From: Planctomycetales bacterium
GTDB taxonomy: Bacteria > Planctomycetota > Phycisphaerae > Sedimentisphaerales > Anaerohalosphaeraceae
Reading direction: 5' to 3'
DNA: 41,974 nucleotides
Assembly (NCBI GenBank): GCA_022615575.1
Contig: JAKEGM010000006.1
Span: 1-41,974, forward strand
Shown here: positions 20,141 through 33,178 of the stretch, one piece after another
How positions within the stretch are numbered: the first letter of the stretch is position 1
Layout: every line of letters starts with the position of its first letter
Notes under the pieces: generated by a model
What the model was told of the DNA's origin: nothing
The model's input: the letters and a program-made list of their open reading frames with translations, nothing else
The model's database searches: none
Program-made: the position numbers and the translations under genes

Positions 20141-21001
20141 TTATTCCGGCTGAATCACAAAAATCAGGGTTCGCACCAGGGCCGCCAGAACATTATAGAC
20201 CGCGTGGGTTCCCGCCGTGATGCCAAAGCCCCGCACCGCATACAGCACCGCAAAATAAATCCCCGCCATCGCCCGAAAAACAAACTTGCCCAGCGTGAAC
20301 GTATCCCCCTGATAAAACCGGCCGTTGGCATAAAAGAAATGATGGTGAATACTGAACAGCACCGCGGAAATCACCACCGACAGTACAATCGACGGTTTTT
20401 TTTCCAGTCGGAATATATCCTGAAACATCAGCATCAGCAGGCAGATCAGAACCAGGCGGAAAATCAGTTCTTCATAAATCCCCGCCCCGATGCCGGTCAC
20501 CATATCCACCAGAAGCTGGTTTCCGGCGGCGGCAGAAAGACCGGCCACGGCAGCGTTGGCCTGCGGCCCGCTGCGGTTGAGCAGTAAACTGAGGACAATC
20601 AGCGGAATGGAAAGCAGGAGACACTCGCCGGCCATCAGCAAAAAATCGGCCGGCTTGACCCGCCACGGGGTTTTCGAGGTTGTCTGCAGCGCCGCGAGGA
20701 TAACCACCACCACCAGCGGGGTGGCAATCAGAGCGGCGCGTGTCGAAAAACCGAGGTACTCCATAATGTTCTGGACCCAGAGAAAGGCCACAACCCGCAC
20801 CTGCGGCTCGGCCAGCGACTGCGACAGCGTCGCCGGTTGAATCAAAAATGTCCCGACGAGAAAAATCAGCAAAAATCCCAGCAGATAGACCAGCGCATAG
20901 ACCGGCCGGCTGGTTCGTTCCGCATACGAATTCGGAACAAACGAAACCAGTTGTCCGGAAACCGCCCGCCGGTCATTGTATCGTGCCACAAAAACTCCCA
21001 A
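20141..21001 (-). CDS. CPBP-family intramembrane metalloprotease
   Basis: The 286-residue protein has about seven hydrophobic helices. It has the three CAAX-processing/bacteriocin-protection (CPBP, Abi) motifs: EExxxR as Glu177-Glu178-x3-Arg182 (GIYEELIFR), a histidine motif in FSIHHHF (His219/220) and a final THAVYN (His266, Asn270). Relatives cleave membrane proteins or peptides inside the bilayer; bacterial substrates are mostly unknown. It is divergent from the DNA glycosylase gene with 92 bp between. Nothing in the neighbourhood suggests a bacteriocin locus. Confidence 0.88.
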   Translation of the reverse strand: MGVFVARYNDRRAVSGQLVSFVPNSYAERTSRPVYALVYLLGFLLIFLVGTFLIQPATLSQSLAEPQVRVVAFLWVQNIMEYLGFSTRAALIATPLVVVVILAALQTTSKTPWRVKPADFLLMAGECLLLSIPLIVLSLLLNRSGPQANAAVAGLSAAAGNQLLVDMVTGIGAGIYEELIFRLVLICLLMLMFQDIFRLEKKPSIVLSVVISAVLFSIHHHFFYANGRFYQGDTFTLGKFVFRAMAGIYFAVLYAVRGFGITAGTHAVYNVLAALVRTLIFVIQPE

Positions 21002-21011
21002 AAGTATCGGT

Positions 21012-21039
21012 TGCTTTCAAAAACGCCACAAGTATAATC
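21012..21039 (+). promoter_or_regulatory. Promoter of the DNA glycosylase gene
   Basis: TTGCTT (21012-21017), 16 bp, TATAAT (21034-21039). Transcription would begin near 21046, which excludes the longer open frame upstream and supports the ATG at 21094. Confidence 0.6.
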
Positions 21040-21093
21040 AAACGGCCTGAAAGTAAAAGAAAAATCGCGCGCAAATTCAAAACAGGAACCTTC

Positions 21094-21759
21094 ATGGGCC
21101 GTCCGTCGCTTGTGGATATTTACAACCGACTTTATGACCGTTACGGGCCGCAGCACTGGTGGCCCGGCGAAACGCCGTTTGAAATCATCGTCGGGGCCAT
21201 CCTGACCCAGAACACTGCCTGGAGCAATGTCGAAAAGGCCATCGGAAACCTTAATAAGGCCGACCGGCTGACGCCGGAAAAACTGCACCGGCTGTCGGTT
21301 GAGCAGCTGGCCGGGTATATCCGCCCGGCGGGGTATTTTAATATCAAGGCCGACCGGCTGAAGCATTTTCTCGATTGGCTGTTCGAAAAACACGGCGGCT
21401 CGCTGGAACATCTCAAGGCCCTTTCGCCGCTGACGCTTCGGGAACAACTGCTAGCCATCAAGGGCATCGGCCCTGAAACCGCCGATTCAATATGCCTGTA
21501 CGCCTTCAGCAAACCGATCTTTGTGGTGGATGCTTATACCGCCCGCATCTTCGGGCGTCACGGAATGGTCGAACCCGGCAGCGGATATGAACAGGTACAG
21601 GATCTATTTCACGGCGGACTTGACAAGGACATTGCGCTTTACAATGAATATCACGCCCTGATCGTTCGAGCCGGCAAGGAACACTGCAAACCCAAACCCC
21701 GCTGCAGCGGCTGCCCGCTGGAAGACCTGCCCCATCAGATTGAAGCGGACGTCTGTTAG
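21094..21759 (+). CDS. Endonuclease III-like HhH-GPD DNA glycosylase (probably monofunctional)
   Basis: The 221-residue protein has ILTQNTAWSNVEKA (36-49), a helix-hairpin-helix IKGIGPETADS (122-132) and the catalytic aspartate Asp146 in FVVDAYTAR. In true endonuclease III a lysine lies in the GxGxKTA hairpin and gives AP-lyase activity. Here that position is Glu128, so the enzyme should remove bases without cutting the strand, as in the MagIII 3-methyladenine group. The C-terminal cysteines (CKPKPRCSGC...C) are spaced C-x5-C-x2-C-x13-C, unlike the classical iron-sulfur loop, so a [4Fe-4S] cluster is possible but not certain. AGGAA stands 7 nt before the ATG. It overlaps by 4 bp, stop to stop, with the second secretin gene. 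Confidence 0.86.
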   Translation: MGRPSLVDIYNRLYDRYGPQHWWPGETPFEIIVGAILTQNTAWSNVEKAIGNLNKADRLTPEKLHRLSVEQLAGYIRPAGYFNIKADRLKHFLDWLFEKHGGSLEHLKALSPLTLREQLLAIKGIGPETADSICLYAFSKPIFVVDAYTARIFGRHGMVEPGSGYEQVQDLFHGGLDKDIALYNEYHALIVRAGKEHCKPKPRCSGCPLEDLPHQIEADVC

Positions 21760-23543
21760 GATTCAGACGGAGCGGGGAGAGATTGCGCCGGCGCCCCCCC
21801 GGCTTCGGGGGCTGACTCGGAAAGCGGCTCCTGGCCCTCAGGGGCCTGCTGTTCCGTCTCGGCGGGTTCGGCAGCAAGCCGCTTGCGGGCTTCCTGCGCC
21901 TGCTGTTCCGCCTCGGCGGCCTTCTGCCGGGCATCCTGCGCTTCCCGACCAAGCCGCTCGGCCTCCTGAAGCGTTTGTTGTATCTGGGCATACAACTGCT
22001 GGCGCTCGGCCTCGAGTTCCTCCACCTTCCGCATATCCGTTTGAATCTGGGTTCGGGTACTCCACGTTTCGGCGGCGATGGCATCCGCTTCCGCCTGTGC
22101 CTGCAGCGCCTGCTGCTGCAATTGGGTCGCCGCTTCACGAAGTTTCCGGGCCTGGGCCTCGGCACCATCAGCGTGATCTTTTTCTGTTTTCGCCCGCACG
22201 AGGGCCTGTTCCAAATCCACCTCGGCCTGAACCCGCCCCATTTCCGCTTCGGTCGCTTTCTTCTCGGCAATCTGCGTATAGGTATCGGTAAAGGGACCGG
22301 TTACCACATCGGTTAGGTCTTTTTCATATTCCGGAGCGCGGTATTTTTTGCGAATGTCTTCAACCATCTTGATATTTTCCTGACCGCCGGAGGAAATACT
22401 CGGCGTCAGGATAAAGATAATTTCCGTCCCCTTTTCTTCGAAATCCTTGCTGGAGAATAAAATTCCCAATAGCGGCAAGTCTTTGAAGAATGGAACCCCT
22501 CTCACCACCGACCGCCGCTCGCTCTTCCGCATCCCGCCGATAATTAAACTCTTGCCCGGTTCTATCCGGTTTTCTTCCACATTGATCGAACGTTCCGTAA
22601 TAATCGGGGCCTGGACAACTCCTTCGGGCTTGGAACGCGATCCAACCTTGATATCGGTTTTCAGCCCGATCGAGCCATCTGAATAGGCATACGGTGTTAC
22701 CATCAGTGTGTTTTCAACCCATACATACTTGGTAATGTTATAGACGCTGCTGACGCCGGCGGCGCCGGTCTTGACTTCTTCAATAGGCGAATAGTCCTTG
22801 ATGGTCACGGTTGCCTGCTGCCCATTGACGGTTTCCAGTTGAGGATTCAAAAGAATCTTCAGATAGCCGCGGGAGACCAGCATGTCCACGACTGCACGAA
22901 CCTGATGCCCGTCAATACCCTGATTATGCCAATAGCCAACGTCCAGGCCGAAATTGGCGCGCTCGACTTCCCTTAGTGAGGCGCCGGGGAACACCGGATT
23001 GGGGTATTTTGTTTCGCCCAGAGTAACCTGTTCACCCAGCAGATTTTCAACCAGTAATGTTGTCTCCCAGTCCATCGTGACATCGCCAAACCGTTCAAGG
23101 ATCAAACAGTCCACATTGATCTGAACAGGCGTTACATCGATCAACTCCAGATATTGCTGTACCGCATCGGCCTGCGGCTGGTCTTTGCAATACGCCACAA
23201 TCTGGTTTGTTGCAGGGTTGATGGCTGAAGAGATATCCAGCTGCTGCTGAACCAGTCCGGCCAGGTCCTTCGCCGGATGATGTTTGGTAAAATAAAACAG
23301 CTTGATTCCGTCTTTGATGGCCAGACGCGAGGGCGGCTGAAGATAGGCCTGGGGAAGCTCGGCGGATTTTGGACTTTCACGAACCTGGCTCAATTCACTC
23401 AGAATCTCCATGGACTCTATTTCAGTGGGTTTCTTGGCAAAAAAATCACCGCACCCGCTGAACACGGCTATGAAGCCCAGCAGTAGAATCCATTCAATCA
23501 ATCCCGATTTTATTTTATCGCTTGTCACCCTGACTGCTTTCAT
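21756..23543 (-). CDS. Lipoprotein secretin-like protein with C-terminal coiled coil, copy 2
   Basis: The 595-residue protein is paralogous to the gene just upstream. A signal segment ends in AVFSGC (lipidation at Cys31), followed by CGDFFAKKPTE, identical in both copies. Residues about 120-380 contain an N1-like subdomain (NQIVAYCKDQPQADAVQQYL) and a secretin core ending in IEPGKSLIIGGM, GVPFFKDLPLLGILF and EIIFILTP, the outer-membrane beta-barrel signature. The last 190 residues are an Ala/Glu/Gln coiled coil and a Pro/Glu tail. Secretins form large outer-membrane pores for type II secretion or type IV pili. No other secretion gene is present here. Its ATG overlaps the upstream stop by 4 bp (ATGA), so translation is coupled. 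Confidence 0.82.
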   Translation of the reverse strand: MKAVRVTSDKIKSGLIEWILLLGFIAVFSGCGDFFAKKPTEIESMEILSELSQVRESPKSAELPQAYLQPPSRLAIKDGIKLFYFTKHHPAKDLAGLVQQQLDISSAINPATNQIVAYCKDQPQADAVQQYLELIDVTPVQINVDCLILERFGDVTMDWETTLLVENLLGEQVTLGETKYPNPVFPGASLREVERANFGLDVGYWHNQGIDGHQVRAVVDMLVSRGYLKILLNPQLETVNGQQATVTIKDYSPIEEVKTGAAGVSSVYNITKYVWVENTLMVTPYAYSDGSIGLKTDIKVGSRSKPEGVVQAPIITERSINVEENRIEPGKSLIIGGMRKSERRSVVRGVPFFKDLPLLGILFSSKDFEEKGTEIIFILTPSISSGGQENIKMVEDIRKKYRAPEYEKDLTDVVTGPFTDTYTQIAEKKATEAEMGRVQAEVDLEQALVRAKTEKDHADGAEAQARKLREAATQLQQQALQAQAEADAIAAETWSTRTQIQTDMRKVEELEAERQQLYAQIQQTLQEAERLGREAQDARQKAAEAEQQAQEARKRLAAEPAETEQQAPEGQEPLSESAPEAGGAPAQSLPAPSES

Positions 23544-25384
23544 TGCGGCGTTACCGGTTCGACAGGCATCTGCGGCAGGGTTTCACTTTGCGCAGGTGCC
23601 GCAGCATCAGGCGCCGTCTGAGGCGGGTCTTGGTCGGATGGAATTTGGGCCGCTTCCTGTTTTTCCAGTTCTTCAAGTTTCTGTTGAATCTTCTGGGCTT
23701 CCTGATGGGCTTTTTGGGCCTCTTGCGAAAACCGCTGAACTTTTTGCTGGGCCTGCTCAAGGGCGGCCTTGGCCTCCTGAGCCGTCTGACGGGCACGCTG
23801 CGCTTCGGCCTGGACCTGCTCAACAGCCGCCTGCGTCTGCGTCATCCGGCCCTGCTGCGCCGCGGCCTCTTTAACGGCGGCCTCCTGCTCGGCCTGGGCG
23901 GCCGCTTTTTGAGCCAGCGATATCTCGATCCCCGCCGCCGACTTGCCGGCCAGTACTTCCATTTCTTTGGCCTCGGCCGCCGCTTTTTCGGCGCGCAGCC
24001 GAGCGGCCTGGGCCTGCCGTTCGGCCTTGGCAGTCTGTATCTGCAGGCGAATCATCTCCGACTCGGCTTGTTCGGCCCGTTCCTGAACGACCTGGGAGTA
24101 CTCTGTGGAACCCAGCGGATCGGTCATGGCCGCATCCAAATCCGACTCGTAATCCGGCGTTTGGAATTTCTGACGGATCATATCCGCCGTTTGCTTGTAT
24201 TCCACCCCGCCGGAGGAGATCGTGGGAGTCAGGATAAAAATAACCTCGGTGGCATTTTCCTCGAAATCCTTGCTCGAAAACAAAATCCCTATGATGGGAA
24301 TATCCTTAAAAAACGGGACCCCGCGAATCACGGAACGGTTCTCACTCTTGCGCATTCCGCCGATAACAAGGGACTTGCCCGGCTGAATCCGATTTTCGGC
24401 CACCCGGATCGACCGTTCCGTAATAATAGGCGTTTGCACAACGCCTTCCGGCTTGGATTTGGACCCAAATGTAATGTTCGTATTAAGACCGATAGAACTG
24501 TCCGCATAAACATACGGAGTAACGGACAAGGTGTCCGCAACCCATTGGTAATCCGTAACATAATAGGGCTCCCGCCCGGCTTCCGTAACCGTCAATTGAA
24601 TTGGAGTATTATCACGAATCTGCACCTGTGCAGATTTGCCGTTGATGGTGTCCAGGGTCGGATTCAAAAGAATTTTAAGATAGCCGCGCGATTCCAGAAC
24701 ATCAACCAGCAGCCGGACCTGATGTCCCTCAACCCCCTCGTTCATCCAATAGCCGAAGTCCAGGCCGAAGGTGGAACGCTGCTCTTCCCGAAGCGAGGCC
24801 CCCGGAAAGGCCGGATTGGGGTACTTGCCCTCGCCCATGGTAATCCCTTCCCCAAAAAGATTCTCAATCAGCAGGGTGGTCTCCCAGTCCTTGGTCACAT
24901 CGCCAAACCGTTCCAGAATCAGGCAATCGATATGCACCTGAATCGGCGGCACATCGGTCTTTTCAAGATACGTCAGCACCTGATCACATTCTTCGTCCGT
25001 GGCGCAATGGACAACAAGCTGATTTGTCGTCGGGTTCGTGCTGACCTTGAACCCAAGGTCGCGAATCGTCCCGCCGTAGCCGTGAACCTGTTTTGCACGG
25101 GCGGGGTCTTTCTCGGAAAAGGTCAAATCGCCAACCGGCTGATACTTCGTGAAATAAAACAATTTGACGCCGTCATCTACTTTCAGCCGTTTGGGACCTT
25201 CTCGATAGACCTCTGGCAGCGGATTGCCGACATACGGATTCTCCTGTACTCGCGCAATATCCCGGATAACTGCCTTGGACTCCAACTCTGTCGGCTTTTT
25301 GGCAAAAAAATCGCCGCAGCCGGCCAAACCCAGCGCCAATCCAAGACCTAAAACAGAGGTTGTTAATCGTGCCACTTTGGACAT
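23540..25384 (-). CDS. Lipoprotein secretin-like protein with C-terminal coiled coil, copy 1
   Basis: The 614-residue protein has a signal segment with lipobox LAGC (Cys23), then GDFFAKKPTELES. N-terminal beta-rich parts (70-145) include TNPTTNQLVVHCATDEE, a short secretin N-domain. The core (150-388) ends with IQPGKSLVIGGM, GVPFFKDIPIIGILF and EVIFILTPTISSGG. Residues 430-580 form a long Ala/Gln/Glu/Arg coiled coil and the end is Pro-rich. The coiled coil after the barrel segment is unusual for a secretin; in known systems this end is a short S-domain that binds a pilotin. Lipidation of the secretin itself may replace a pilotin. The start at 25384 has no strong ribosome site; an ATG 4 nt upstream is out of frame. 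The two copies probably form mixed rings or serve two substrates; that is inference. Confidence 0.83.
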   Translation of the reverse strand: MSKVARLTTSVLGLGLALGLAGCGDFFAKKPTELESKAVIRDIARVQENPYVGNPLPEVYREGPKRLKVDDGVKLFYFTKYQPVGDLTFSEKDPARAKQVHGYGGTIRDLGFKVSTNPTTNQLVVHCATDEECDQVLTYLEKTDVPPIQVHIDCLILERFGDVTKDWETTLLIENLFGEGITMGEGKYPNPAFPGASLREEQRSTFGLDFGYWMNEGVEGHQVRLLVDVLESRGYLKILLNPTLDTINGKSAQVQIRDNTPIQLTVTEAGREPYYVTDYQWVADTLSVTPYVYADSSIGLNTNITFGSKSKPEGVVQTPIITERSIRVAENRIQPGKSLVIGGMRKSENRSVIRGVPFFKDIPIIGILFSSKDFEENATEVIFILTPTISSGGVEYKQTADMIRQKFQTPDYESDLDAAMTDPLGSTEYSQVVQERAEQAESEMIRLQIQTAKAERQAQAARLRAEKAAAEAKEMEVLAGKSAAGIEISLAQKAAAQAEQEAAVKEAAAQQGRMTQTQAAVEQVQAEAQRARQTAQEAKAALEQAQQKVQRFSQEAQKAHQEAQKIQQKLEELEKQEAAQIPSDQDPPQTAPDAAAPAQSETLPQMPVEPVTPQ

Positions 25385-25673
25385 TCATCACGCAAAAAAA
25401 TACGTTCAGTTTCCTTGTCCCTGCTGTGCAGGCGCTAGCTCTTTTCACTCGTGTTCCATCGATTCACGGTACGCTCCCCCTAAAATCAGTTCGGCGGTGA
25501 AAAAATGCAGGCCGAATTCCATTTTACAGGCATCCTGATTTGCCCTTTTCCTGCTAAAACGAATTTGTTCGGGACTCTATTGCATATCAATGGGAGAATT
25601 TCTCATCACAACTGACCCAAAATCTTACAAATCAATGGATTTTTACGGCATTATGTGTTATTTTTTCTGCCCA

Positions 25674-27026
25674 ATGGGTCAAAAACGCCAAAAATATGTT
25701 TCCGTGGGCTTTGTCGCTCTGGGATGTCCCAAAAACATCGTGGACAGCGAGGTCATGCTTGCGCAAATCGGTCAGGCGGGCTTTGTGCTCAGTTCCGACC
25801 CGGATTCGGCCGATGTGGTCGTCATCAACACCTGCGGCTTCATCGAACCGGCCAAACTGGAGGCGCTGGATGCCATCCGGCAGGCCGTCCGCCAAAAGAA
25901 AAAGGGCCGCATCCGAAAGGTTATCGTTGCGGGATGTCTTTCCGAGCGTATGGGCCAGGCACTGGCTGACGAGGTCAAAGGCATTGACGCTGTTATCGGT
26001 CTTTCTCAGCGGGACCAGGTCGCCGCGATTATTCAAAACTGCCTGGCGGAAAGCAGCCCCCATCCGGCGGAGATTTATGTCGAGCCGTCGGGGGTCGGCA
26101 TCCACGACGACCGCGGGCGCCTCTTGATTACGCCGGGGCACTGGGCTTACCTGCGCATCAGCGAAGGGTGCAGCCGCAAATGCTCCTTCTGCACCATCCC
26201 GGCCATTCGCGGAAAATTCCGCAGCAAGCCGATGGAAATAGTGCTGGATGAGGCCCGCGAACTGGTTTCCAGCGGGGCCGTGGAGCTGAGCGTCATCGCC
26301 CAGGACAGCAATTTTTACGGCCGGGATATGGGCCTCAAGGACGGCCTGATTCAACTGATTGGCCAACTGGAAAAGATAGAACCGCTGCGGTGGCTGCGGC
26401 TGATGTACCTGTATCCGGCGGGTGTGGACGACGCTCTCATCCAGGCCGTCGCCCAAAGCAAAAAGATTGTCCATTACATCGATATGCCCATCCAGCATAT
26501 CAACAATGATATCCTCCATTCAATGCGGCGGGCCGACAGCAAAGAGCACACTATCGAACTGGTCGAAAAGGCGCGAACAGCCATGCCCAATGTCGCCCTG
26601 CGGACGACCGTTATCGCGGGCTATCCCGGCGAGACCGAGGCGCAATTCGAAGAACTGCTGGAGTTTGTCCGGTGGGCCGGGTTTGATGCCCTGGGCTGTT
26701 TTCCATTCTATGCCGAAGCGGGCACGGCGGCCGCCGAACTGCCCGGCCAGATTCCCAACGACACCAAGAATCAGCGAGTCGATGCGTTAATGGGCGTCCA
26801 GCAGAGTATCGTCTTTGCGAAGATGGACGCCCGAATCGGCGCCGAATGGACGGTCCTGGTCGATGAGGTCTTCAAAGATGAGGCCGTCGGGCGGTATTAC
26901 GGCCAGGCCCCGCATATCGACAGCGTCTGTAAAATTCAAAACGCCCGCGCCCAGGCAGGCCAATCCATTCAGATCCGCGTTATCGGCCGCGACGGGTATG
27001 ATTTTATTGTTGAACAAATCGATTAA
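25674..27026 (+). CDS. rimO: Ribosomal protein S12 methylthiotransferase RimO
   Basis: The radical-SAM enzyme adds a methylthio group to the conserved Asp of ribosomal protein S12. It is 450 residues from the ATG at 25674. The RimO-type N-terminus VGFVALGCPKNIVDSEVM, NTCGF and VAGCLSERMG carry the auxiliary-cluster cysteines. The radical-SAM motif is GCSRKCSFCTIPAIRGKFRS (CxxxCxxC), and SVIAQDSNFYG follows. A C-terminal TRAM-like domain begins near 380. In-frame ATGs at 25590, 25635 and 25653 are open upstream, but none has a Shine-Dalgarno site. The one at 25674 best matches family length. It stands divergent from the secretin pair. Confidence 0.94.
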   Translation: MGQKRQKYVSVGFVALGCPKNIVDSEVMLAQIGQAGFVLSSDPDSADVVVINTCGFIEPAKLEALDAIRQAVRQKKKGRIRKVIVAGCLSERMGQALADEVKGIDAVIGLSQRDQVAAIIQNCLAESSPHPAEIYVEPSGVGIHDDRGRLLITPGHWAYLRISEGCSRKCSFCTIPAIRGKFRSKPMEIVLDEARELVSSGAVELSVIAQDSNFYGRDMGLKDGLIQLIGQLEKIEPLRWLRLMYLYPAGVDDALIQAVAQSKKIVHYIDMPIQHINNDILHSMRRADSKEHTIELVEKARTAMPNVALRTTVIAGYPGETEAQFEELLEFVRWAGFDALGCFPFYAEAGTAAAELPGQIPNDTKNQRVDALMGVQQSIVFAKMDARIGAEWTVLVDEVFKDEAVGRYYGQAPHIDSVCKIQNARAQAGQSIQIRVIGRDGYDFIVEQID

Positions 27027-29476: not shown

Positions 29477-29553
29477 TTGCCTCGCCGCGATTGAACGCGC
29501 ATAAATAAGGAGAAACGAATCCCCCTTGCGTCCTACGGGCCTGGCACCTGTGC

Positions 29554-29591
29554 GTTTCCTCATCCTCCCCATTCTTGAGGGCAGAGGAAAC
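29554..29591. repeat. Inverted repeat between ettA and the lipid-transport operon
   Basis: GTTTCCTC (29554-29561) pairs with GAGGAAAC (29584-29591) around a 22-nt loop that itself has CCTC/GAGG words. It lies just upstream of the next promoter, so it may end the ettA transcript or act as a regulatory site. Confidence 0.4.
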
Positions 29592-29595
29592 ACGC

Positions 29596-29624
29596 TTGAC
29601 AGGTATCGGCGGGTCGGGTACAAG
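29596..29624 (+). promoter_or_regulatory. Promoter of the Mla-like operon
   Basis: TTGACA (29596-29601), 17 bp, TACAAG (29619-29624). Transcription near 29631 rules out the longer open frame beginning at 29526 and supports the ATG at 29670. Confidence 0.7.
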
Positions 29625-29669
29625 TTTCGGACAGAATATGTAACGTATCCGGCAAGGACAGTGCAGGCA

Positions 29670-30815
29670 ATGAAACAGGCATCCAACAACACTCCGGAGG
29701 CCGCGGCGTTTGCGGTAACGCGCAGCGATGGGAGGCAGGTTCGCCTCGAGCTGGCCGGCCCGCTGACATACGCCTCGCTGGGGCCTGTGTGGAACGCCTG
29801 CATCCACGCCGTCCGACGTGCCCAGCCTAAGACGCTTGTCATTGACGCCCGGCAGGTAACGACCTGCGACGGGGCGGGCATCGGGTTTTTGTCCTTCTTG
29901 CTGGCGCGGGTGAAAAAAAAGAAATTCTCCGCCGAAATCGTCGGCCTTCGCCCCGAATTGCAGGCGATGCTGGAGCGGTTTGGCCAGCCCAGTGCACCGG
30001 AACCCCCCGCCCCGCCCGCCGGATTGGGGGCGATCGCGGCGCTGGGCAAGGCGTCTGCCGAGTTTTTTGCCGATGTGCATTCCCAGATCGCTTTTTTCGC
30101 CCGCATCCTGCTGACCGGCGCGCGGATGGCAGCCCATCCGTGGCGTTTCCGCTGGAAGGACTTTTTCGTCATTGCTGAATTGGCCGGCTTCCGCGCCCTG
30201 GAAATCGTCTCGCTGCTGGGCTTTCTGTTCGGGCTGATTATCGCGTTCAGTTCGGCGATGCCGTTGCGGCAGTTCGGCGTGGAAATCTACGTCGCCGACC
30301 TGGTGGCCATCGCGCTGGTGCGGGTGCTGGGGCCGTTTATCACCGCCGTCATCGTCGCCGGACGCACCGGCTCGGCGTACGCGGCGGAAATCGGCACGAT
30401 GAAAATCAACAACGAAATCGACGCCCTCGAAGTAATGAACATGGACCCGGTGTCGTTTCTGGTGCTGCCGCGTGTTTTGGCCGCCCTGCTGGTTACGCCG
30501 CTGCTGACGGTGATGGCCAACCTGTGGGGCCTGATTGGTTCCGGGCTGGTGATTCGTTCGCTGGGGTATCCGCTGGTCATCTACCTGTCGCACGTTCAAT
30601 CCATCCTGTCGATGACCGATGTGCTGGTCGGGCTGGTCAAGGCGGTGATCTTCGGCGGGCTGGTGGGCATGGTGGGCTGTCTTCGCGGCCTGCAAACGCA
30701 ACTGGGAGCCGGGGCGGTCGGCATCGCCACCACGCGGGCGGTTGTTACGGCCATTATTCTGCTGGTGCTGACCGAGGGCGTCTTTTCCGTTCTGCTGCAC
30801 TTTTTGGAAATCTAA
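29670..30815 (+). CDS. mlaE: MlaE-family ABC permease with fused STAS domain
   Basis: The 381-residue protein has an N-terminal STAS-like domain (about 15-110, with VIDARQVTTCDGAGIGFLSF) corresponding to MlaB. A permease of five or six helices follows (about 150-381), with the family stretches VLGPFITAVIVAGRTGSAYA and EIDALEVMNMDP. Fusing MlaB to MlaE is common outside enterobacteria. The complex moves phospholipids between inner and outer membrane leaflets. AAGGA stands 11 nt before the ATG. It is the first gene of a four-gene operon with intervals of 3 bp, 27 bp and a 4-bp overlap. Confidence 0.92.
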   Translation: MKQASNNTPEAAAFAVTRSDGRQVRLELAGPLTYASLGPVWNACIHAVRRAQPKTLVIDARQVTTCDGAGIGFLSFLLARVKKKKFSAEIVGLRPELQAMLERFGQPSAPEPPAPPAGLGAIAALGKASAEFFADVHSQIAFFARILLTGARMAAHPWRFRWKDFFVIAELAGFRALEIVSLLGFLFGLIIAFSSAMPLRQFGVEIYVADLVAIALVRVLGPFITAVIVAGRTGSAYAAEIGTMKINNEIDALEVMNMDPVSFLVLPRVLAALLVTPLLTVMANLWGLIGSGLVIRSLGYPLVIYLSHVQSILSMTDVLVGLVKAVIFGGLVGMVGCLRGLQTQLGAGAVGIATTRAVVTAIILLVLTEGVFSVLLHFLEI

Positions 30816-30818
30816 CCC

Positions 30819-31580
30819 ATGCGTAAGCCGATTATACAAGTGGACAATCTGACATGCGGCTACGGCGACACCCTTATTCTGGAAAAGGTGTCGTTTGACG
30901 TGCGGCAAGGGGAGATTTTCGTCATTCTCGGCGGTTCCGGCTGCGGCAAAAGCACCCTGCTGCGTCACCTGATCGGGCTGCAGTCCCCCCTGACCGGAAC
31001 CATCCGTATTCTCGGCCGGGATATCACGGCCGCCGAAGGGAATCAGCGGAAGCAAATCCTTTCCTCGTTTGGGGTCTCCTTTCAGGGCGGTGCCTTATTG
31101 GGGTCGATGACCGCGGTTGAAAACGTCATGCTTCCCCTGCGCGAACACACCGCCCTGCCGGCCGATGCCGTCGGATGGATCGCCCGGCAAAAGCTCCGAT
31201 TGGTCGGCCTGCAGGGGTACGAGGACTACAAGCCCGCACAACTCAGCGGCGGGATGCAGAAACGCACCGCCCTGGCCCGGGCGATGGCGCTGGACCCGCA
31301 AATCCTGTTCCTGGATGAACCCTCGGCGGGGCTGGACCCCATTACGGCGGCCCAGCTGGATGAGCTGATACTGCAGTTGTCGCAGATGATGGGGATTACC
31401 TTCGTCATTGTAACCCATGAGCTGCAAAGCATTTTTGCCCTGGCCAGCCGGGCCATCCTGCTGGAGAAAAACGCCAGGGGCATCATCGCCGAGGGCAACC
31501 CCAATGACCTCAAGAACGATCAGACAAATCCGGCCGTCTGGCGATTTTTCAATCGAATGCCGGCCGCGGCTTCGGTATAA
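30819..31580 (+). CDS. mlaF: MlaF-family ABC transporter ATPase
   Basis: The 253-residue cytoplasmic ATPase has Walker A GGSGCGKST (38-46), the Q-loop in VSFQGGALLGSMTAVENV, signature LSGGMQKRTALARA, Walker B ILFLDEPSAGLDP and the H-loop in IVTHELQS. The GGALLGSMTAVENV and SGGMQKR details are typical of MCE-associated ATPases rather than importers. It powers the adjacent permease. The start ATG follows the permease stop by 3 bp, so translation is coupled. Confidence 0.94.
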   Translation: MRKPIIQVDNLTCGYGDTLILEKVSFDVRQGEIFVILGGSGCGKSTLLRHLIGLQSPLTGTIRILGRDITAAEGNQRKQILSSFGVSFQGGALLGSMTAVENVMLPLREHTALPADAVGWIARQKLRLVGLQGYEDYKPAQLSGGMQKRTALARAMALDPQILFLDEPSAGLDPITAAQLDELILQLSQMMGITFVIVTHELQSIFALASRAILLEKNARGIIAEGNPNDLKNDQTNPAVWRFFNRMPAAASV

Positions 31581-31607
31581 TCAGCGGCACAACAGGGAAA
31601 AAACACG

Positions 31608-32558
31608 ATGAAACAAGATGGAACCTATTTTAAGATCGGGATTTTTGTGCTGGGCTGCCTGGCGGTGCTTTTGGCTGGGCTGGCCTGGCTGAGCAGCAGC
31701 GCGTTTCGGGGCAACCCGGTTCTCATCGAGACCTACATCAATGAATCCGTCCAGGGCCTCAGCGTCGGTTCCGCCGTCATGCATCGCGGGGTGGAAATCG
31801 GCCGCGTCAAGACCATCACCTTCGTTCCCCTGCTGTACCCCCTCACGCCCAACACGCCGGACTATGAAACATACGATCGCTATGTGGTCGTCATTATGGA
31901 AATCAACAGCCGGACTTTTTTGGGCGTGGATTATGACCCGGCACAGGTTAAAACCCTGCTGGCCGACAAAGTCAAACTCGGTCTGCGGTTTAAGCTCAGC
32001 TATCAGGGAATCACGGGGCTGGCGTTTATGGAAGCGGATTATTTTGACAATGAGAAAACGCCGCCGCTTACGGCCGTACCCTGGGCATCCAGAAACATCT
32101 ATGTCCCCTCGACCCTCAGCTTCATCACCAGCTTTACCCAGGCCCTGGAAAATATTTACTACCGCCTCAAAGAGATGCCGATTGAGGAAACGCTCGAAAA
32201 AATGCAGACCACGTTAGGCACCATCGATCAGGCCATTCGGGATGCGCAATTAGGCCAGGTCAGCCAATCCGTCGTTGCGCTGGCCGATGATTTGCGCAAG
32301 ACAAACCTCCAGCTGCAGGACTTACTCGCCTCCGCCCAGAATCTGCCGGACGACGTCGATGCGGCGGCCCGGCAGCTGCGCACCACCCTGTCAAAAGTCG
32401 AGCAGCTCATCGATCGCAATGAACCGGACGTGGAAGCCATCCTCAACGCGCTGAAAACCCTGTCGCAAAACCTGCGGCAGCTCACGGAAAATCTCAAGGC
32501 CGACCCGGCCCAGCTTTTCTGGTCAACTCCTCCCTCTCGTTCGGAGCATGTTAAATGA
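31608..32558 (+). CDS. mlaD: MlaD/MCE-domain protein
   Basis: The 316-residue protein has one N-terminal membrane helix (about 9-30, FKIGIFVLGCLAVLLAGLAW), then an MCE domain (about 40-145, VQGLSVGSAVMHRGVEIGRV and LSYQGITGLAFME). A C-terminal helical region (about 180-300) predicts coiled coils. The Pqi/Mla family forms hexameric rings in the periplasm that guide lipid across the envelope. The long C-terminal helices suggest a tube or needle extension as in PqiB/YebT-like proteins, but only one MCE domain is present. It overlaps by 4 bp with the following lipoprotein gene. Confidence 0.92.
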   Translation: MKQDGTYFKIGIFVLGCLAVLLAGLAWLSSSAFRGNPVLIETYINESVQGLSVGSAVMHRGVEIGRVKTITFVPLLYPLTPNTPDYETYDRYVVVIMEINSRTFLGVDYDPAQVKTLLADKVKLGLRFKLSYQGITGLAFMEADYFDNEKTPPLTAVPWASRNIYVPSTLSFITSFTQALENIYYRLKEMPIEETLEKMQTTLGTIDQAIRDAQLGQVSQSVVALADDLRKTNLQLQDLLASAQNLPDDVDAAARQLRTTLSKVEQLIDRNEPDVEAILNALKTLSQNLRQLTENLKADPAQLFWSTPPSRSEHVK

Positions 32559-33178
32559 AATCAAAGACCCTTTTAACCATCGGCGCATGTTTTCTGGCGG
32601 GCACCGTACTGACCGGCTGCCGGAAACCCCTGCAAAAACAAACCTTTCTCCTGGAAGTCCGGCGTCCGGAAACCGCCGCCGTGCAATCCATCGCGGCCTG
32701 CCTGGACATCCGTCCCTGTCAGGCGGCATCGGGCTTTTCGGGAAGCCAACTGATTTATCGAACAAGCCAGGTCGCCTATGATCAGGATTACTACCATGCC
32801 TTCCTGGTCAGTCCCGAAGACCAGATAACCGAACACCTGACCCAGTGGTGCCACAGCAGCGGGCTGTTTGCCTGCCCGCCGAACGCTGAAACCGTAACGC
32901 TGGAGCCGTATCTGGAAGCCCTGTATGCGGATTTTCAGCAAAAAAACAGCCACGCCGCGGTTGCACGGTTCCACGTCCGGCTAACTCGCGTGGACAAAAG
33001 CTGTTCGTGTCCGGTCGTCCTGCTGAACAAAACTTATTCGGCCGCGACTCCCCTTTCTCCGGGTCCAGACGGGGCGGAGGTCGTGAATGGTCTAAGCGCC
33101 GCCCTGACCCAAATCCTGCAGGAATTGGAACACGACCTTGCTTTTTCCTCTCCCTCGCCCGGCTCGAAATCGGAATGA
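32555..33178 (+). CDS. ABC-transport auxiliary lipoprotein (PqiC-like)
   Basis: The 207-residue lipoprotein has lipobox LTGC (Cys22). The body follows the PqiC/YmbA pattern: QTFLLEVRRPE, LDIRPCQAASGFSGSQLIYR, and a helix after YHAFLVSPEDQITEHLTQW, SSGLF, LEPYLEALYADF. Such proteins sit in the outer membrane and dock the MCE tube. Presence here instead of a periplasmic MlaC shows that this operon follows the PqiABC-type plan for the outer-membrane end while using MlaE/F at the inner membrane. It is last in the operon (ATGA overlap with the MCE gene). Confidence 0.82.
   Translation: MKSKTLLTIGACFLAGTVLTGCRKPLQKQTFLLEVRRPETAAVQSIAACLDIRPCQAASGFSGSQLIYRTSQVAYDQDYYHAFLVSPEDQITEHLTQWCHSSGLFACPPNAETVTLEPYLEALYADFQQKNSHAAVARFHVRLTRVDKSCSCPVVLLNKTYSAATPLSPGPDGAEVVNGLSAALTQILQELEHDLAFSSPSPGSKSE

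What the first reader, a model, noticed from the sequence alone, without database searches (positions are those of the whole stretch)
21756..25384. Tandem lipidated secretins with long C-terminal coiled coils and no secretion partners
Two paralogues share CGDFFAKKPTE after the lipobox, a reduced N-domain set, a secretin core and then 150-190 residues of Ala/Gln/Glu coiled coil where a pilotin-binding tail is expected. They are coupled by ATGA. No pilus, type II or phage gene is nearby. They may form a hetero-oligomeric outer-membrane pore of a new type.
Basis: partly seen in the sequence, partly recalled or inferred. Interest (0 to 1): 0.65.

Follow-up and report, generated by a model that had tools for sequence, protein, structure and literature searches.

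The report
Order-specific orphan lipidated secretin pair
Two neighbouring genes encode lipid-anchored outer-membrane gate proteins (secretins) with a long coiled-coil tail, a family found only in one order of Planctomycetes and never beside the secretion or pilus machine that such gates normally serve, so they are either a shared exit port for a machine encoded elsewhere or a gate that works alone.

Summary
Both genes encode real secretins: lipobox, one KH-like N-domain, complete barrel, then a 136-150-residue helix with true heptad periodicity. They are members of an undescribed secretin subfamily confined to one order of Phycisphaerae. It matches no curated secretin equivalog (best 96 bits against a GspD cut-off of 351). 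In 35 loci with 393 neighbour genes there is no linked secretion, pilus or Tad machine, only one lone prepilin-like gene. The pair is cleanly missing from some relatives, one of the same genus. Tandem pairs formed or were homogenised at least five times (AU p 1.5e-38 against one origin). "No partners" needs a caveat: the genome holds seven T2SS/T4P/Tad-type machines, and two, C56 and C124, have no linked secretin. C124 is not an obligate partner. C56 is near-universal, but so is another orphan secretin, C21. Most likely it is a self-piloted accessory exit port, coupled in a non-canonical way because it lacks N0. A stand-alone gated pore remains open; hetero-oligomerisation is possible but untested. 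New variant of a known kind.

The parts
23540..25384 (-). SecA: lipidated secretin, 614 aa (upstream copy of the pair)
   Evidence: Pfam Secretin E 1.1e-28; model and VIA Z 13.8 to GspD 5w68
25316..25384 (-). SecA signal peptide and lipobox LAGC, lipidated Cys23, followed by GDFFAKKPTE
   Evidence: translation; Gly22-Cys23 at least 90% conserved
24944..25192 (-). SecA single KH-like N-domain (residues 65-147), matches the KH-type N-domains of XcpQ/GspD; no N0 fold before it
   Evidence: 5ngi Z 7.7, rmsd 1.7, 61 aligned; weak Secretin_N E 0.014
24218..24940 (-). SecA secretin barrel (residues 149-389)
23660..24109 (-). SecA C-terminal coiled-coil helix (residues 426-575)
   Evidence: model; heptad period 3.50, P 0.018
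21756..23543 (-). SecB: second lipidated secretin, 595 aa, start overlaps the SecA stop (ATGA)
   Evidence: Pfam Secretin E 3.3e-27; model
23127..23330 (-). SecB KH-like N-domain (residues 72-139)
   Evidence: pLDDT 92-96
22395..23123 (-). SecB secretin barrel (residues 141-383)
21876..22283 (-). SecB C-terminal coiled-coil helix (residues 421-556)
   Evidence: heptad period 3.52, 0 of 500 shuffles as high
25590..27026 (+). rimO, the conserved divergent neighbour (boundary of the insertion site; not a functional part)
   Evidence: NCBIfam TIGR01125 434 bits; rimO in 27 loci; empty sites
20848..21759 (+). endonuclease III-like DNA glycosylase (nth), the other boundary of the site; directly adjacent to rimO in same-genus G075, which lacks the pair

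Best explanation
SecA and SecB are self-piloted liposecretins of an order-specific subfamily. Steps: (1) export and lipidation at Cys23/Cys31 (shown in sequence); the lipid anchor carries them to the outer membrane without a pilotin (inferred from HxcQ). (2) The barrel domains assemble a ring of about 12-15 subunits, a gated pore (fold shown, ring inferred). (3) There is only one N-domain ring and no N0, the domain by which GspD binds GspC, so docking to an inner-membrane platform cannot be canonical (shown in the models). (4) The coil, about 22 nm if straight, hangs from the barrel's periplasmic side and may take over the spacing or docking role of the missing N-domain stack (inferred). (5) The pore most likely serves in trans as an accessory exit port for a T4P/T2SS-type pseudopilus machine encoded elsewhere, most plausibly the near-universal C56-type PilB-PilT-PilB-PilC-prepilin cluster, which has no linked secretin (inferred). 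(6) SecA and SecB are a duplicated pair specialised in their N-domains and tails (divergence shown, meaning inferred).
For: Secretin fold complete. Lipobox conserved. No linked machinery. In the window's genome five machines keep a linked secretin while C56 and C124 have none. In four single-contig genomes the C56-type GspF has no secretin within about 60 kb, and it is near-universal in the order. C56 resembles, by description only, the secretion-related locus Plim_0410-0401 highlighted in the P. limnophila essential-gene study (PMC10632474). Clean losses of the pair in genomes that keep C56 fit an accessory port.
Against: A second orphan secretin, the 1062-aa C21 type, occurs in 77 of 78 genomes and is the more parsimonious C56 partner. 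C56 is kept where the pair is absent, so dependence is at best partial. With no N0 there is no known docking site. No interaction, localisation or secretion data exist.
Confidence: 0.4

Rival explanations
1. Stand-alone gated outer-membrane pore: the secretin ring works without any inner-membrane assembly machine, the coiled-coil cage gating it or tying it to peptidoglycan. It passes solutes or periplasmic polymers, or shapes outer-membrane extensions.
For: No linked machine in 35 loci; no N0 domain; in f3 genomes C124 is absent and the one secretin-less machine (C56) already has a universal orphan secretin available. [quoted passage not shown]
Against: Every well-studied secretin works with an inner-membrane machine (general knowledge); several members have nearly no coil, so a coil-based mechanism cannot hold for the whole family.
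Confidence: 0.27
2. Dedicated outer-membrane channel of the C124-type type IV pilus (PilM,N,O, PilB, PilT, PilC, prepilins), which has no linked PilQ.
For: C124 lacks a linked secretin in the window's genome up to its contig end, and in complete G056 the nearest secretin is about 20 kb away beside another machine.
Against: C124 is absent from complete or near-complete genomes that have the pair or a single copy (G018, G063, G069, G105, G081, G259, G198) and present in many that lack the family; 24/31 against 10/19, Fisher p 0.12, no phylogenetic correction.
Confidence: 0.12
3. SecA and SecB form one obligate hetero-oligomeric ring.
For: ATGA coupling; A and B lineages stably kept across genera of the window's clade; barrel 70% identical between A and B, so mixed rings are sterically plausible.
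Against: Many family members are single genes; pairs do not share one origin; recurrent tandem duplicates also fit dosage or two separate homomeric rings.
Confidence: 0.25
4. Non-functional or decaying relic of a lost secretion system.
For: Clean loss in several genomes.
Against: Intact long frames, strongly conserved core (over 40 invariant columns across 36 sequences) and repeated duplication argue for selection.
Confidence: 0.03

Closest known systems
HxcQ-type liposecretins (T2SS of Pseudomonas aeruginosa)
   Same: Secretin with its own N-terminal lipid anchor, expected to be self-piloted through Lol (PMC4604470 citing Viarre et al. 2009)
   Different: HxcQ belongs to a linked T2SS; the window pair has one N-domain, no N0, a coiled-coil tail and no linked machine
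T2SS secretin GspD/PulD
   Same: Barrel fold and S-domain helices (VIA Z 13.8, 7.5 A over 300 residues, 5w68); best NCBIfam score
   Different: 95.8 bits against an equivalog cut-off of 351; N0-N1-N2 missing; no GspC/E/F/G linked
Filamentous phage pIV (f1/M13)
   Same: Short secretin of similar core; best PDB sequence hit 7ofh E 5e-12; PHROG 1012 E 7e-26; Z 13.0
   Different: No phage genes nearby, lipidated, coiled-coil tail, housekeeping chromosomal site, order-wide distribution
T4P secretin PilQ and Amuc_1098 (Akkermansia)
   Same: Secretin core (PilQ 81.5 bits; Amuc_1098 family 30.5 bits)
   Different: Far below cut-offs (284 and 750); no PilM/N/O/P linked; no AMIN or N0 domain found
Lone secretin-like complexes of Flavobacterium johnsoniae tubes (PMC8455137)
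   Same: Secretin seen without an inner-membrane partner
   Different: Identity of that protein unproven; different phylum; no sequence link tested

Membership tests
Secretin superfamily (PF00263) | Complete secretin domain / barrel strands | tested here: met
   Profile 2-167 of 169, E 1e-28 and 3e-27; all strands in both models; Z up to 13.8
T2SS GspD (TIGR02517) | Equivalog score cut-off 351 | tested here: not met
   95.8 and 78.3 bits
T2SS GspD (TIGR02517) | N0-N1-N2-N3 periplasmic domains | tested here: not met
   Only one KH-like domain predicted; residues 24-64 are helix and linker
T2SS GspD (TIGR02517) | Linked T2SS genes | tested here: not met
   No E/F/C/L/M genes in 35 loci; one lone prepilin-like gene
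T4P PilQ (TIGR02515) | Subfamily cut-off 284; linked PilMNOP | tested here: not met
   81.5 and 65.8 bits; none linked
T3SS SctC (TIGR02516) | Equivalog cut-off 238 | tested here: not met
   68.4 and 66.9 bits
MshL (TIGR02519), HofQ, Amuc_1098 | Equivalog cut-offs 250 / 554-598 / 750 | tested here: not met
   59-63 / 24-34 / 28-30 bits
Phage pIV (PHROG 1012) | Phage assembly genes nearby | tested here: not met
   Neighbours are rimO, pgsA, nth, rpsB-tsf-pyrH-frr
Liposecretin (works like HxcQ) | Lipobox at the N terminus | tested here: met
   LAGC-G / FSGC-G; Gly-Cys at least 90% conserved
Liposecretin (works like HxcQ) | Lol-dependent outer-membrane location and pilotin independence | not testable with these tools
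   Needs fractionation or mutagenesis; +2 residue is Gly, not Asp

The most novel reading that the evidence does not exclude
A secretin class that has dropped inner-membrane docking (no N0, no linked ATPase platform) and replaced the periplasmic N-domain stack with a ring of about 22-nm C-terminal coiled coils, giving a stand-alone, possibly two-subunit, gated outer-membrane conduit peculiar to one planctomycete order.
Probability: 0.2. Interest if true: 0.75.

Novelty: new variant of a known kind. Interest (0 to 1): 0.45.

Why it matters
Secretins are understood as the outer-membrane end of energised machines. A subfamily that is repeatedly duplicated and repeatedly lost, with no linked machine, no N0 docking domain and a long coiled-coil tail, is a natural test of whether a secretin can work alone. 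It also exposes a wider puzzle: in these genomes a near-universal pseudopilus machine (C56 type) has no linked secretin, while at least two orphan secretin families exist, so which gate serves which engine is an open and testable question.

Tried and rejected
(a) Homologues beside T2SS/T4P genes: not found. (b) A small partner downstream (c7, 126-175 aa, 10 loci): rejected, because it stays beside rpsB or rimO where the secretin is absent (G140, G146) and has no Pfam or NCBIfam family. (c) AsmA, YihY and rpsB-operon genes as partners: they belong to the translation operon, which in the window's genome lies on another contig (C116). (d) C124 T4P as obligate partner: not supported. (e) Single ancient duplication of all pairs: rejected, with the caveat that gene conversion could mimic this. 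(f) Phage origin: rejected by the neighbourhood. (g) genome-contig search with one protein gave only 2 loci, so I used the genome search. (i) Consensus promoter/terminator scan of the locus gave no more promoter-like sites than chance. (j) Literature: no paper found on these proteins; searches for orphan or hetero-oligomeric secretins gave nothing on point except PMC8455137.

Full report
OBSERVATION. Both have a signal peptide, a lipobox and then GDFFAKKPTE. Pfam Secretin covers profile positions 2-167 of 169 at E 1.1e-28 and 3.3e-27. AlphaFold2 models from 34-36 family sequences (mean pLDDT 70 and 73) show one KH-like N-domain (SecA 65-147; SecB 72-139), every barrel strand, two short S-domain-like helices and then one helix of 150 or 136 residues. 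Foldseek and VIA-align put secretins on top (GspD 5w68 Z 13.8, pIV 7ofh Z 13.0, PilQ 6ve2 Z 12.8); the N-domain alone matches the KH-type N-domains of XcpQ (5ngi Z 7.7, rmsd 1.7). No N0 fold precedes it. The tails peak at a hydrophobic period of 3.5 in 9 of 10 members, P 0.000-0.03 against composition-preserving shuffles. The tail is therefore a real coiled coil, though its sequence is poorly conserved and a few members have a very short tail.

FAMILY. A class-wide search found full-length relatives (E below 1e-80) in 37 genomes, all of the window's own order; outside it only generic secretin hits above 1e-21 appear. A phylum-wide profile search (392 genomes) found it only in that order. The first look of that tool can miss distant members, so 'order-restricted' holds at this sensitivity. 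In a tree with the window genome's other secretins the family is one clade (99/99), although the outside rows sit on long branches. Curated models place it in no known secretin equivalog: GspD 95.8 of 351 bits, PilQ 81.5 of 284, SctC 68 of 238, MshL 59 of 250, Amuc_1098 30 of 750. Invariant residues include Cys154, and Cys127 is nearly so, a possible N-domain disulfide (inference).

DUPLICATION. Many members are single genes. Tandem pairs occur in f1 and f3, but upstream copies are not one clade (AU p 1.5e-38; at least five changes forced by well-supported branches). Either duplication recurred or pairs were homogenised by conversion. ATGA-type 4-base overlaps in several lineages (gene coordinates) make conversion of one old pair a live alternative. 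In the window's own sub-clade A and B have stayed separate since before the genera split; A-B identity is 70% in the barrel, 46% in the N-domain and 26% in the coil, against 79, 65 and 37-39% within A or B. This suggests specialisation of the periplasmic parts on a common barrel. It allows, but does not show, a mixed ring.

NEIGHBOURHOOD. The site is housekeeping DNA: rimO divergent (present in 27 loci), pgsA beyond it, and on the other side nth plus a CPBP protease, or rpsB-tsf-pyrH-frr. Among 393 neighbour genes of 35 loci, comparison with the machine proteins of the window's genome found one lone prepilin-like gene and two weak cross-hits to a Tad-locus TPR-like protein. Relatives without the family show clean empty sites: same-genus G075 has nth directly beside rimO; G140 has rimO-c7-rpsB. 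The module is therefore dispensable and comes and goes as a unit.

PARTNERS ELSEWHERE. The window's genome has nine secretins. Five sit with their own machine: C26, C156, C67, C19 and the Tad locus C72. The others are the window pair and two orphans with TPR repeats, C21 (1062 aa) and C96 (570 aa). Two machines lack a linked secretin: C56 (PilB, PilT, PilB, PilC, about seven prepilin-like genes) and C124 (PilM, N, O, PilB, PilT, PilC, prepilins; the contig ends there). In four single-contig relatives the C56-type GspF again has no secretin nearby. C124 is missing from complete genomes that have the family and present in many that lack it (24/31 against 10/19, Fisher p 0.12), so it is not an obligate partner. 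C56 is near-universal; it resembles, by description only, the Plim_0410-0401 locus highlighted in the P. limnophila essential-gene study, four type II secretion genes followed by six planctomycete-specific ones (PMC10632474). I did not compare the sequences. The C21-type orphan secretin is in 77 of 78 genomes, so C21-C56 is the more parsimonious couple and the window family would be an additional port, or independent.

MECHANISM. Shown: lipoprotein secretin by sequence, complete barrel, single N-domain, coiled-coil tail, no linked machine, dispensable. Inferred: lipid anchor as self-pilot (as in HxcQ, PMC4604470); a ring of 12-15; coils of about 22 nm spanning or bracing the periplasm; a role as accessory exit port in trans. 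The missing N0 matters because N0 is what GspC binds in T2SS (PMC3169554): either docking is of a new kind or there is none. I put 0.4 on an exit port in trans and 0.27 on a stand-alone pore.

VERDICT. The 'new type of hetero-oligomeric pore' is partly supported: a new, order-specific secretin subfamily is real, the hetero-oligomer is untested, and the genome does hold two machines without a linked secretin. Novelty: new variant of a known kind.

Noticed in passing
window 29526-33178 (+): MlaE permease with STAS domain, ABC ATPase, MCE/MlaD protein and ABC_trans_aux-like lipoprotein: an Mla/PqiB-like lipid-transport operon.
   Followed up: partly
L081:2886-6074 (genome contig C21): 1062-aa TPR-plus-secretin orphan gene with no linked machine, detectable in 77 of 78 genomes of the order.
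   Followed up: partly
L096:5927-19009 (genome contig C56): PilB-PilT-PilB-PilC plus about seven prepilin-like genes, near-universal in the order, with no linked secretin or PilMNO.
   Followed up: partly
L084:6830-10471: 1213-aa fusion of a BlaR1/M56 metallopeptidase, an STN domain and a secretin in one relative.
   Followed up: no
L082:10896-12608 (genome contig C96): 570-aa protein with N-terminal TPR repeats and a C-terminal secretin, with no pilus or T2SS genes beside it.
   Followed up: no
L099:8345-9481, L100:10033-11169, L101:2743-3849: Lone PilT-like ATPase genes scattered in the window's genome.
   Followed up: no
L073 and L074: Two f4 genomes carry a second, dispersed copy of the window's secretin family away from rimO.
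   Followed up: no
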